A stretch of DNA of 53,338 nucleotides, from assembly GCA_020692245.1 (NCBI GenBank), contig JAIMKT010000008.1, positions 11,354 to 64,691 of the forward strand, written 5' to 3'. Under the pieces are notes generated by a model, which was not told the DNA's origin, searched no databases, and saw only the letters and a list, made by a program, of their open reading frames with translations. Positions 9,395 through 14,835 of this stretch are shown in pieces (position 1 is the first letter of the stretch; every line of letters begins with the position of its first letter). Made by a program: the position numbers and the translations under genes. Source of the stretch: Microcoleus sp. GA_180221_E-2-1-MAG-45_12 (GTDB lineage: Bacteria > Cyanobacteriota > Cyanobacteriia > Cyanobacteriales > JAAUUE01).

Positions 9395-9538
9395 AGGGAA
9401 GATTAAAAATTAGCTACTGGTGCATTCTAACATTATCTCTAGGGGCGAACTTTTGACAGCCAACAGGTACAAGCAAAGAGGGCGCAAAGCCTTGTACCCC
9501 TGCGAATATTTTTATTGATATTTTGGAAAATAGGTTTT

Positions 9539-10657
9539 ATGCTTTATCGGCGCTTTGGGAAAACTAACTTAAATTTATCCGTGTTTTCCTGTGGGACGAT
9601 GCGCTGTCTGGAATCTGCGGAGATTTTTCAGGAGACGATCGAGGCAGCCCTAGCTTCTGGGGTCAATCATCTGGAAACTGCTAGGGGCTATGGTAAAAGT
9701 GAATTGTATCTGGGGCAGGCGATCGCTTCTGGTCTGGGCGTACTACGGGAAAATCTCTACATCACTACCAAAGTATTACCCACCCCTGATCCCGAAAAAA
9801 TGCGCCGAGAAATTGATGCATCCCTAGAGCTTTTGCAGGTAGATTATCTAGACTGTATGGCAATTCATGGAATTAATACTTGGGAACATCTAGACTGGAC
9901 AAAATCTAGCTGGTCAGCAATTCAAGCTGCCCTAGATACGGGGAAAATTCGCCATGTGGGTTTTTCTACCCATGCACCCCTAGAAATTATTTTGGCAACT
10001 ATTCAGACTAATTTGTTTGAGTTTGTGAATCTGCATTACTACTATTTTTTTCAACGTCACGCTCCAGCGATCGACCTAGCCCATGCCCAAGATTTAGGAA
10101 TTTTTATTATTTCCCCTGCTGATAAAGGCGGCTTACTCTACGATCCCCCACCAAAATTGCAGGAATTGTGCGCTCCTCACCAGCCCCTAGATTTAACCTA
10201 TCGTTGGCTCCTGAATGATCCCCGGATTACCACCCTCAGTTTTGGGGCAGCAACGGCGGCAGAAGTAGCTCCCGTATTAACCAGTAATTATTCTCAACCC
10301 CTCAGCCCAACAGAAATAAAAATTTTTGAGAATCTAGAAACCCATTTGTCCCAAAGCCTCGGTACGGATAAATGTAGCCAGTGTTATGCCTGTCTGCCCT
10401 GTCCAGAAAATATTGCCATCCCCGAAATTCTGCGTCTGCGAAATCTAGCCGTTGCCTACGACATGACCAACTATGGAGAATACCGCTATGGAATGTTGGG
10501 AAATGCCGGACATTGGGTTCCCGGAGCCAAGGGCGATCGATGTACCCAGTGCGGTGATTGTCTGCCCCGTTGCCCAGAACAGCTACCCATCCCCCAACTA
10601 TTAGAAAACACCCATCAGAAGTTAAAAGGTTCCCCACGCAGACGGTTATGGGGATAG
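9539..10657 (+). CDS. Aldo/keto reductase with C-terminal 4Fe-4S cluster motifs
   Basis: MLYRRFGKTNLNLSVFSCGTMR start; C-terminal CSQCYACLPCP and CTQCGDCLPRCP. Confidence 0.92.
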   Translation: MLYRRFGKTNLNLSVFSCGTMRCLESAEIFQETIEAALASGVNHLETARGYGKSELYLGQAIASGLGVLRENLYITTKVLPTPDPEKMRREIDASLELLQVDYLDCMAIHGINTWEHLDWTKSSWSAIQAALDTGKIRHVGFSTHAPLEIILATIQTNLFEFVNLHYYYFFQRHAPAIDLAHAQDLGIFIISPADKGGLLYDPPPKLQELCAPHQPLDLTYRWLLNDPRITTLSFGAATAAEVAPVLTSNYSQPLSPTEIKIFENLETHLSQSLGTDKCSQCYACLPCPENIAIPEILRLRNLAVAYDMTNYGEYRYGMLGNAGHWVPGAKGDRCTQCGDCLPRCPEQLPIPQLLENTHQKLKGSPRRRLWG

Positions 10658-10705: not shown

Positions 10706-11035
10706 TTAGAGAGGAGTGGGTAAACCTAGGGCTTGGAAGAAGCGATCGGACAGCCGACGATTACCCCGTAATTCTGCTAATTGGCGATGGTAGGTACTAC
10801 TCAGATCAAGACTAGCTTGGCGATTCACTGAGTCTCCCAGAATATCAGTAGTTATCCTTTTTTGAACTGTGGCTAAATTCAGGGTATTTGTCCGAAATTT
10901 TAGCAACCAACGATTTAAGGTTAATCTCCTTAACACCACTCCTCCTGAGATTGCCGCCATCTCACCTTCAGTTAATTCTGCCATGCACTCTGGGTTGAGG
11001 GGGCTGAGGTTACGGTAATTTTCTTGTTCACTCAC
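10706..11035 (-). CDS. Small protein with double-glycine leader (paralog A)
   Basis: 109 aa; leader ...MAELTEGEMAAISGG then Cys-free 77-aa core VVLRRLTLNRW...NRQASLDLSS...GNRRLSD...GLPTPL. Confidence 0.8.
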   Translation of the reverse strand: MSEQENYRNLSPLNPECMAELTEGEMAAISGGVVLRRLTLNRWLLKFRTNTLNLATVQKRITTDILGDSVNRQASLDLSSTYHRQLAELRGNRRLSDRFFQALGLPTPL

Positions 11036-11160
11036 AACGATTATTCCTTTACTTGGTTATTTGCTTTGGTATTTTTTGCTGTTTGTACTTGCTAATCAAG
11101 CATCCTAGAATTATCTAATTAGGGATTAACTAAGGATCAATTAGATAATTAATTTAGGAT

Positions 11161-11568
11161 TTAATTAGGCACAGGTAGTCCAACAGCCCGATAAAGACTA
11201 TCTGCTAGTTGTCTATTTCCTTCTAGGGCAGTTAACTGGGTATGAAACTGACTGCTCAGATCGAGATTAGCCTGACGATTGGTGACATCAGTTAATAGGT
11301 CTGTGACTCGAACTCTGATATTTGTTGTTTTAAGAATATTCTGTTGGAATTGGAATGTCCAACGGTTCAGGGCTTTCCGGCGGAGAATTGCTCCCCCACT
11401 CACCGCTGCCATGGTTTCTGGGTCTAGTTCTGCCACTAGCCAAGCAGAGTTAGAAGAGGGCAACAAAGAGTCTGTCTCTGGAGTTTGATGATTTTGAGTA
11501 TCTTGGTTCATGGATTTGAGATCAACTATTTTGATATTGCTTTCAGCATTGGGTTGCATACTTGCCAC
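11161..11568 (-). CDS. Small protein with double-glycine leader (paralog B)
   Basis: 135 aa; leader ...LVAELDPETMAAVSGG then Cys-free 76-aa core AILRRKALNRW...NRQANLDLSS...GNRQLAD...GLPVPN; homologous to paralog A. Confidence 0.8.
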   Translation of the reverse strand: MASMQPNAESNIKIVDLKSMNQDTQNHQTPETDSLLPSSNSAWLVAELDPETMAAVSGGAILRRKALNRWTFQFQQNILKTTNIRVRVTDLLTDVTNRQANLDLSSQFHTQLTALEGNRQLADSLYRAVGLPVPN

Positions 11569-11604: not shown

Positions 11605-12420
11605 ATGATTAATCTTCATTTCCAAATTCGGGGGCAAGGTACACCGATTCTTTGTCTCCACGGACATCCCGGCAATAGCCAAGCCATGACAGTATTTACC
11701 GACCACCTATCTCAAAACTACCAAACCATTACCCCAGATCTCCGAGGCTACGGCAAGAGCAAGCCTAGGGGCAACTTTCAAATGCTTGATCACCTTGAAG
11801 ATTTAACCCAGCTTTTGGATCAACAGGGGATCGATGAGTGCTTGATTTTGGGTTGGTCTTTGGGAGGGATTCTCGGCTTGGAGTTGGCTTTGCGTTTACC
11901 CCAACGGGTTAAGGGTTTAATCTTATTAGGGACGGCAGCGAGACCACGGGGCAGTCATCCAGCCATTAGTTGGCAAGATAATTTATACACAGGGATTGCT
12001 GCTTTGATTAATGCCGTATCTCCGGGGTGGCAGTGGAATATTGATACCTTTGGGAAGCGATCGCTCTTCCGTTACCTGATCCAAACCCATACCCCAGAGA
12101 CTTACCAATGGATAGCAAAAGCAGCCGTCCCTGCCTACCTGCAAACGACTCCCGAAGCAAATCAAGCCCTGAGTAAAGCTCTCCGTCAAGGTTATAATCG
12201 CCTCCCGCAATTGGCAGACCTCACCTGTCCTTGTTTAGTTTTAGCTGGGGCGGACGATCGACACATCACCAGTGCTTCTAGCCTCGAAACTGCGGAATAT
12301 TTACCCCAAGCCCAGAGCCATTGTTATCCACAAACAGCCCATTTATTTCCCTGGGAAATTGCCCCCGTCGTCCTCAGGGACATTGATCAATGGTTAGCCG
12401 CAAATTTTACAAAACTCTAA
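11605..12420 (+). CDS. Alpha/beta hydrolase
   Basis: 271 aa; LHGHPGNSQAM, GWSLGGILGLELA, TAHLFPWE. Confidence 0.92.
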   Translation: MINLHFQIRGQGTPILCLHGHPGNSQAMTVFTDHLSQNYQTITPDLRGYGKSKPRGNFQMLDHLEDLTQLLDQQGIDECLILGWSLGGILGLELALRLPQRVKGLILLGTAARPRGSHPAISWQDNLYTGIAALINAVSPGWQWNIDTFGKRSLFRYLIQTHTPETYQWIAKAAVPAYLQTTPEANQALSKALRQGYNRLPQLADLTCPCLVLAGADDRHITSASSLETAEYLPQAQSHCYPQTAHLFPWEIAPVVLRDIDQWLAANFTKL

Positions 12421-12765: not shown

Positions 12766-14835
12766 TTACATATGAATCAGTTTATCCCAACGTTGACGGC
12801 AGGTTTCATAGAGAACTAGCGCCGCCGCTACCCCAGCATTGAGGCTAGGAGTTTTCCCCGCCAAAGGAATTGAGACCACTTCATCACAATGCTCTTGAGT
12901 GAGGACATTTAAGCCCTTGCCTTCAGAACCAATAACTAATGCTACCGCCCCCGTGAATTTAACGGTGTGTATAACTTTACCGGAATCTGCTGTGGTTCCG
13001 TAGATCCAAAATCCAGCTTCCTTGAGTTGGGCTAAGGCTCGGTTGAGATTCACCACCCTTGCTACGGGCAGAAATTCTAAAGCTCCGGCGGCAACCTTAC
13101 GAACTGCGGCAGTAATACCGACGGCTCGGCGTTGGGGAATAATCACCCCTTGGACTCCGAGGGCTTCGGCAGTGCGGATCATGGAGCCAAGATTATGGGG
13201 ATCAGTAATCCCTTCGGCAATTAACAGGAGGGGATCAGGGCTGGCAGCTTTGGCTTTGGCAATGAGATCCTCTAGTTCCACATAGTCGTAGGCAGCAACT
13301 TGGGCAGCAATACCTTGATGGTTGGCTCCGTCAGTAATTTGGCTTAAACGGCGGGGGTCAACTTCATTAACCACGGCTCCTTCGGCTTTGGCTTGTTGCA
13401 ATAGAGAATAGAAGCGGGGATCATGGCGGAGTTGAGGGACTACCCAGATGCGGTTTAGTTGACGTTGGTTTTCTAGGGCAGCGATCACAGGATGGCGACC
13501 ATAGATTAGATCCATTTCTTCTTCGACCTCTGGTTCTGGCTCGAATCGATCGTAATCACCCCGATCGCCCCGCTCAGATCGATCGAACTTAGAAGCGTCC
13601 CGGCGAGATCCCCAAGAATTGCCTTCCTGTCTAAAATCTTTCCTTCTAGAGTCTGGCTGTCTAAAATCCTGCCGTCTTTGAGAATCAACTCGATCGACTT
13701 CCCTAGAGATTTTGGGAGGGGCTGGATAATCAACATCCTCGATCGCCATTTCCGGATCTACTACATCAAGAGAACTAGGAGAATCAAACTCGTCTTGATC
13801 TTCTTGATCTTCATGGTCTAATTGAGCTTCGTGATCTATCTGATCTATTTCAAAATCTTCTCCAGAAGCACCTAAATAATCCAAGGGAGTAGCTGTATCG
13901 AATTCTTCTCCAGAGTAATCATCAAAATCATTTTTTGAGGTGGATTTTGTCGAGAGGACAGGAGATGGTTTGGCATAATCAGAAAACTCTCGATCGCTGC
14001 CTTGAGTTAGTTTAGGTTTACCGATTCCTCTGCCTAGACGGGGTGTTCCTTGGCGATCGCCATAGCCAGTCTGTTTATCTGGGGATCCATTGCTATATTT
14101 CTGATCGTATCTATTCCCCCCTCGATCGCTGTACTTATCACCATATTTACCACTAGGTTTACCGTAGCGATCGCCACCCCGGTCATCCAGACTATTTCCT
14201 CTAGGGCTGTTTCCTCTGGGGCTGTAGCGATCATCACCTTGATCTCGCCGTGCTGGTCGCCGTTCTCCACCAAAATCATCTCTAAAGCCATCCCTAGAAC
14301 CACCAAAATCTCGCTCTTGCTCCCATCGGGGCTTGGCTGTGCGGTCTCGATAGGGGGCGGGGGACTTGCTAAAGGAATTACTACCACCTTGGGTCTTTTT
14401 CGCTTTCGGGGGTCTGCTGCCGGGAGCAGGGTAACGGGGGCGGGCATCCTTATCTCTGGGCGCAAAATCTCTAGGCGCAAAATCACCATCTTGACGACGG
14501 CGGGGAGCTACCTCGTTTTCATTACGGAAGTTTCGGGTCTCTCTAGGGGCAAATTCTTGATCTTCTCCTTGGTAGCGGCTTCTGGGAGACTTACCACCTC
14601 TAGCTGGGGCATCAGAGAAACGGGTAGGGCGATCGACAAAAGTATCACCACGATTGTCACGATTGTCACGGTTGTCACGATTATCACGATCATAGCGATC
14701 GCTACGGTCTGCAAAACGGTCGGCAGGACGATCGACACCCCGATAGGGACTGCGATCGACACGATGAGGACTGCTGCCCGCAACAGAAGATTGTTTTTTG
14801 CTCTTGGCAAAGGTCGGGCGGTTTTTCTTAGGCAT
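12766..14835 (-). CDS. rlmB: TrmH-family 23S rRNA (guanosine-2'-O)-methyltransferase RlmB with long disordered N-terminal extension
   Basis: 689 aa; C-terminal [23 protein letters not shown]...[29 protein letters not shown]...IGSEGKGLN SpoU signature; N-terminal ~440 aa R/D/G/S-rich. Confidence 0.92.
14644..14702. repeat. 9-nt tandem repeat (gattgtcac-type) encoding NRD repeats inside the rlmB extension
   Basis: caccacgattgtcacgattgtcacggttgtcacgattatcacgatcatagc; protein [15 protein letters not shown]. Confidence 0.8.

What the first reader, a model, noticed from the sequence alone, without database searches (positions are those of the whole stretch)
10706..11568. Tandem pair of Cys-free paralogous proteins with double-glycine leaders: candidate undescribed secreted peptide family
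Two adjacent same-strand genes encode leaders ending in AELTEGEMAAISGG and AELDPETMAAVSGG, followed by 77- and 76-aa cores. The cores share LRRxxLNRW...F..N.L...R.TD.L.D..NRQAxLDLSSxxHxQLxxLxGNRxLxD....A.GLPxP. Double-Gly leaders normally direct export by peptidase-containing (C39) ABC transporters. The cores lack Cys and are larger than typical class II bacteriocins, so they match no RiPP family I recognise. No transporter or obvious tailoring enzyme is in the window, though a 4Fe-4S aldo/keto reductase and an alpha/beta hydrolase flank the pair. They may be substrates of a transporter encoded elsewhere.
Basis: partly seen in the sequence, partly recalled or inferred. Interest (0 to 1): 0.7.

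Follow-up and report, generated by a model that had tools for sequence, protein, structure and literature searches.

The report
Scattered cyanobacterial double-glycine secreted protein family
Two neighbouring cyanobacterial genes belong to a previously unnamed family of small, basic, helical proteins that carry a cut-off export tag and are probably secreted by the cell's only peptidase-type exporter, which lies elsewhere in the genome; it is a new family of a known kind.

Summary
Window 10706-11035(-) and 11161-11511(-) encode paralogues (52% identity) with double-glycine leaders and Cys-free 77/76-aa cores. Both are conserved in a sister species under purifying selection and match nothing in Pfam, NCBIfam, PHROGs or PDB.

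The pair is only part of the picture. A leader-motif scan of the host genome led to six further loci with the same leader and a remotely related core (hxRWxxxF...NL...QR): eight dispersed loci here and six in the sister species. No convincing member turned up outside the genus in 390 genomes of the class or 390 of the order. A profile built without the pair recovers P0001 at E=8.6e-6.

Subfamily B is predicted as a confident five-helix domain (core pLDDT ~90) with no PDB or viral fold match.

Most likely these are PCAT-processed secreted proteins. EbfG-like extracellular or matrix use seems more plausible than a classical bacteriocin, but that is inference. A new precursor family of a known kind.

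The parts
10706..11035 (-). P0001 precursor gene (109 aa, GTG start)
   Evidence: ORF; orthologue with dN/dS 0.03/0.59; recovered at E=8.6e-6 by a profile of subfamily B only
10940..11035 (-). P0001 double-glycine leader (32 aa, ends MAELTEGEMAAISGG)
   Evidence: sequence; L-12, E-8, M-7, I-4, G-2, G-1 fit the consensus quoted in PMC3140520, with Met for Ile/Leu at -7
10709..10939 (-). P0001 core (77 aa, no Cys, pI 11.8, net +8)
   Evidence: core-only link to subfamily B
11161..11511 (-). P0002 precursor gene (116 aa, ATG start)
   Evidence: orthologue in L006
11392..11511 (-). P0002 double-glycine leader (40 aa, ends VAELDPETMAAVSGG)
   Evidence: sequence; the N-terminal part is hypervariable between species (leader dN 0.52) while the residues before GG are kept
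11164..11391 (-). P0002 core (76 aa, no Cys, pI 11.2, net +5)
   Evidence: dN/dS 0.07/0.37; low-confidence helical model
11109..11150 (.). 12-bp inverted repeat AATTATCTAATT...AATTAGATAATT between the two genes; the sister species has the AATTAGATAATT arm and tandem TTAATCCCTAG units here
   Evidence: read; function not tested

Best explanation
The two genes encode substrates of a peptidase-containing ABC transporter (PCAT, C39 type). Shown: canonical double-glycine leaders; conserved, Cys-free basic cores; membership of a dispersed genus-specific family whose leader motif (L-12, M-7, [ST]-3, G-2, G-1) is shared although the cores have diverged; and one catalytically complete PCAT gene per genome. 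Inferred: the C67 transporter binds the leader, its C39 domain cuts after GG, and the mature 8.7-10.5 kDa helical protein leaves the cell, perhaps with an HlyD-type adaptor and TolC encoded elsewhere. Also inferred, and weaker (about 0.4 on its own): the mature proteins act extracellularly for the producer's own community (surface, matrix or biofilm, as EbfG1-4 do in Synechococcus elongatus) rather than as a classical bacteriocin.
For: Leaders: all ten compared have M-7, G-2, G-1; nine have L-12 and one Ile. P0002's leader diverges (44% aa identity) while its core is 92% identical. Family: profile A7 built only from subfamily B finds C42 at 7.2e-8, P0001's orthologue at 1.3e-6 and P0001 at 8.6e-6. 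Core-only profiles without leaders rank C42, P0001's orthologue, P0001 and C54 above every one of 4,650 decoys (E 0.016-0.064 against 0.83 for the best decoy). Transporter: the C67 PCAT is 715 aa and matches PCAT1 4ry2 at E 4e-114, with Cys, His and Asp aligned; the sister species has the same gene next to the same threonine synthase-like gene. The only other C39-like gene is HlyB-type (TIGR01846 over cut-off) and lacks the DCGAAC-like Cys motif. Structure: subfamily B core is a five-helix domain, core pLDDT about 90, pTM 0.71 from seven sequences. Precedent: PteB exports EbfG1-4, small GG proteins without homologues in other cyanobacteria (PMC4997328). Against a bacteriocin: no gene recurs among the neighbourhoods inspected by eye, so no shared immunity partner.
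Against: No transcript, proteome or export data. No HlyD-type gene lies beside the PCAT; nine HlyD-like matches exist and none passes the curated cut-off. P0002's core and that of its orthologue are not found by the subfamily B core profile, and the profile-profile P was only 0.009; P0002's membership rests on its 52% identity to P0001. The model of P0002 is poor (pLDDT 53). Four of ten leaders have Ala at -8 and three have Thr at -4, off the consensus. Function is by analogy only.
Confidence: 0.75

Rival explanations
1. Orphan bacteriocins: the mature basic helical proteins are secreted by the PCAT and kill or inhibit competing cyanobacteria, with immunity encoded elsewhere or intrinsic.
For: Double-glycine leader and PCAT are the standard class II bacteriocin and microcin route; cores are basic (pI 10-11.8) and helical; Wang et al. 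call such cyanobacterial precursors bacteriocins (PMC3140520).
Against: No recurrent neighbour that could be an immunity gene at five loci; cores under purifying rather than diversifying selection; many dispersed paralogues; larger than typical class II peptides.
Confidence: 0.25
2. Signalling or developmental secreted proteins, in the way HetC is proposed to export an unidentified regulatory peptide.
For: PCATs in cyanobacteria are proposed to export signals (HetC, PMC10986499), and no GG gene lies near hetC, so dispersed substrates are expected.
Against: Cores of 76-98 aa with a predicted folded domain are large for a peptide pheromone; no receptor gene recurs nearby.
Confidence: 0.12
3. Cytoplasmic small proteins in which the GG is an ordinary turn; the leader resemblance is coincidental.
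For: No adjacent transporter; export not measured.
Against: The same leader with L/I-12, M-7 and GG precedes remotely related cores at every intact locus compared, here and in the sister species; leader and core evolve at different rates in P0002; an intact PCAT is conserved in both genomes.
Confidence: 0.08

Closest known systems
EbfG1-4 / PteB of Synechococcus elongatus PCC 7942
   Same: Small GG-leader proteins, several paralogues, lineage-restricted, exported by a C39 PCAT (PMC4997328)
   Different: EbfG genes form one operon beside pteB, and EbfG1-3 form amyloid (PMC9981879); here genes are dispersed, the exporter is orphan, and the best model is globular and helical
CTB family bacteriocin (NF038167)
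   Same: Cyanobacterial small proteins with a GG leader of similar type
   Different: One family member (C42) reaches only 12.7 bits against a cut-off of 32, mainly over the leader; P0001 and P0002 do not match
Cyanobacterial NHLP / N11P double-glycine precursors and bacteriocin gene clusters
   Same: GG leader, C39 transporter, very diverse cores (PMC3140520)
   Different: No Nif11 or nitrile-hydratase-like leader found, short leader of 25-40 aa, no HlyD/SurA/LanM cluster, precursors not beside the transporter
Mersacidin/lichenicidin lantibiotics (TIGR03898, PF16934)
   Same: Weak match at the leader end
   Different: TIGR03898 is below its cut-off and PF16934 reaches only E=0.008; cores have no Cys, so no lanthionine is possible

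Membership tests
Double-glycine (C39/PCAT) export substrate | Leader with L-12, E-8, hydrophobic -7 and -4, GG at -2/-1 | tested here: met
   P0001 fits all of these positions; P0002 all but E-8 (Thr)
Double-glycine (C39/PCAT) export substrate | Catalytically complete C39 ABC exporter in the genome | tested here: met
   C67, PCAT1 alignment with Cys, His, Asp kept
Double-glycine (C39/PCAT) export substrate | Cleavage after GG and appearance outside the cell | not testable with these tools
   needs experiment
EbfG | Sequence homology to EbfG1-4 | not tested
   EbfG sequences were not fetched; PMC4997328 reports no homologues of mature EbfG in other cyanobacteria
EbfG | Gene cluster next to the C39 transporter | tested here: not met
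   genes on C101, C128, C15, C5, C121, C42; exporter on C67
CTB family bacteriocin NF038167 | Score above curated cut-off 32 | tested here: not met
   best 12.7 bits in C42, none for P0001/P0002
NHLP / Nif11 (N11P) precursors | Nif11 or nitrile hydratase alpha-like leader domain | tested here: not met
   no such Pfam/NCBIfam hit
Lanthipeptide | Cys in the core for thioether rings | tested here: not met
   no Cys in the six cores computed
Bacteriocin | Antimicrobial activity and immunity gene | tested here: inconclusive
   no recurrent neighbour; activity not testable

The most novel reading that the evidence does not exclude
A genus-specific repertoire of at least eight dispersed genes encoding folded, basic, five-helix secreted proteins with a fold not seen in PDB, all processed by one orphan PCAT: a private extracellular toolkit of this cyanobacterium, in which the exporter has become a general secretion route for folded proteins rather than a dedicated bacteriocin transporter.
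Probability: 0.3. Interest if true: 0.6.

Novelty: new member of a known kind. Interest (0 to 1): 0.42.

Why it matters
The main survey of cyanobacterial double-glycine precursors screened regions next to transporters (PMC3140520). Here the precursors are scattered and the exporter stands alone, so that kind of survey would miss both. The result gives a concrete candidate substrate set for an orphan PCAT and a testable parallel to the EbfG/PteB system, whose mature proteins likewise lack homologues in other cyanobacteria. It also suggests that lineage-specific PCAT cargo families are under-counted.

Tried and rejected
Family libraries and PDB sequence search: nothing above cut-off.

Phage tail-sheath resemblance: the subfamily B profile hit tail-sheath-like proteins in two genomes (L074, L075; E 5e-4 and 9e-4 per genome, 390 genomes searched). 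Rejected as chance: about 0.2-0.4 such hits are expected over the search, and no sheath structure appears among the Foldseek hits (the sheath identification is my own reading of the sequence).

L042, L043, L008 and other weak hits: long, frame-broken or otherwise unconvincing ORFs. L087/L089 in other genera are GG-leader proteins with unrelated cores; L089 reaches 23.8 bits to CTB, also below cut-off.

The first decoy test used loci that the profile itself had selected and was therefore biased; it was repeated without them. Plasmid and viral-contig searches: nothing. Source habitat of the sister MAG: not found in the library.

Full report
OBSERVATION. Two minus-strand genes lie between a 4Fe-4S aldo/keto reductase (9515-10657 +) and an alpha/beta hydrolase (11605-12420 +). 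P0001 (10706-11035) has leader MSEQENYRNLSPLNPECMAELTEGEMAAISGG and a 77-aa core; P0002 (11161-11511) has a 40-aa leader ending VAELDPETMAAVSGG and a 76-aa core. They share 52% identity over 91 aa. Neither core has Cys, though the P0001 leader has one. No Pfam, NCBIfam, PHROG or PDB sequence match is significant.

REALITY. Both genes are syntenic in a sister species, Coleofasciculaceae cyanobacterium SM2_1_6. P0001 has dN 0.03 and dS 0.59. P0002's core has dN 0.07 and dS 0.37, while its leader has dN 0.52 and dS 0.68. The core is constrained and the leader is free except for its last residues, as expected of a removable leader.

A LARGER FAMILY. A leader pattern scan of the host genome gave 22 hits against 8 for the reversed pattern. 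Three hits in short ORFs at leader position share an RW motif in the core: P0001, C42 and C128. Searching with the C128 protein found more: C128 (two genes), C15 (cut by the contig end), C5 and C121 here; C445, C440 and C90 in the sister species. I call these subfamily B, C42/C54 subfamily C, and the window pair with its orthologues subfamily A. In all there are eight loci in the host genome and six in the sister (plus the C69 pair).

IS THE PAIR REALLY PART OF IT? A profile made only from subfamily B finds C42 at 7.2e-8, its orthologue C54 at 5.7e-7, P0001's orthologue at 1.3e-6 and P0001 at 8.6e-6. These matches include the leader, so I tested cores alone. With subfamily B cores as profile, C42, P0001's orthologue, P0001 and C54 are the four best non-members, ahead of 4,650 decoys (E 0.016-0.064 against 0.83). 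With B plus C, P0001 and its orthologue are top at 0.015 and 0.0044 against 1.4 for the best decoy. In the reverse directions the best non-member is again a family member, though weakly for A alone (0.63). A profile-profile comparison aligns the same RW helix, P=0.009. P0002's core is not found directly; it joins through P0001. I judge common ancestry likely (about 0.85), not proven.

DISTRIBUTION. No member outside the genus was found at E<=0.01 in 390 genomes of the class with the combined profile. In 390 of the order with the subfamily B profile, hits outside the genus are weak, mostly long or frame-broken ORFs; L087 and L089 carry similar leaders on unrelated cores. There are no relatives in plasmids or viral contigs. 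The first-look filter of the genome search may miss very remote members, and the collection holds only part of known diversity.

MACHINERY. The genome has two C39-like genes. C67 encodes a 715-aa PCAT that aligns with PCAT1 end to end (E 4e-114) and keeps the catalytic Cys, His and Asp. It follows a threonine synthase-like gene by 12 bases, and the sister species has the same arrangement. No HlyD-type gene is adjacent; weak HlyD-like loci lie on other contigs. C58 encodes a 972-aa HlyB-type exporter with an N-terminal cyclic-nucleotide-binding-like region and a C39-like domain without the catalytic Cys motif (the domain reading is mine). The only evident processing exporter is therefore C67.

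STRUCTURE. Cores are basic (net +4 to +8, pI 10.0-11.8) and Cys-free. AlphaFold2 gives a confident five-helix domain for the mature part of the C121 protein (mean pLDDT 79.5, pTM 0.71, core about 90, first 14 residues disordered), with no PDB or viral structure match at E<=0.001. AlphaFold DB was not available. P0002 is predicted helical at low confidence only (pLDDT 53), so the fold of the window pair itself is not established.

HOW IT PROBABLY WORKS. The precursor is made; the leader helix and GG are recognised by the C67 C39 domain; it cuts after GG; the mature protein is exported, perhaps through an unlinked adaptor and outer-membrane channel. Each step after translation is inferred from the leader, the intact exporter and precedent: PteB of S. 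elongatus needs its Cys to export EbfG1-4 efficiently, small GG proteins without homologues elsewhere that support biofilm (PMC4997328), of which EbfG1-3 form amyloid (PMC9981879). No immunity-like partner recurs beside the five neighbourhoods inspected by eye, which argues mildly against bacteriocins. The discussion of HetC notes that no GG-leader gene lies near hetC, so PCAT substrates may lie far from their exporter (PMC10986499).

VERDICT. What is added is the family: dispersed, multi-copy, genus-restricted in what was searched, with a probable folded helical product and a single orphan exporter. It is a new family within a known kind, not a new kind of system.

Noticed in passing
window 11109-11150: 12-bp inverted repeat AATTATCTAATT/AATTAGATAATT between the two precursor genes; the sister species carries tandem TTAATCCCTAG units at the same place.
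   Followed up: partly
L006:8776-9917: The aldo/keto reductase beside the pair is split into two ORFs (212 + 163 aa) in the sister MAG but intact in the window: frameshift or assembly error.
   Followed up: no
L054:164-562 and L054:1985-2368; L055:2-226: Recent duplicates (about 82% identical) on either side of a 274-aa ORF (854-1678) that reads like a methionine aminopeptidase (not searched); a third copy is cut by a contig end, so the array may be longer and the assembly broken by it. The linker right after GG varies most.
   Followed up: partly
L087:1378-1795, L089:1369-1813: In other genera of the order, GG-leader proteins with near-identical leaders (MSDHI...SDLFI..SEKE.ES.SGG) and cores unrelated to this family; L089 is below the CTB bacteriocin cut-off (23.8 against 32 bits).
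   Followed up: partly
L074, L075: Tail-sheath-like proteins in two genomes gave weak matches to the subfamily B profile (E 5e-4 and 9e-4 per genome); taken as chance.
   Followed up: partly
window 12766-14835 (-): Protein whose C-terminal part reads like an RNA methyltransferase, with a long low-complexity Arg/Asp-rich N-terminal extension.
   Followed up: no
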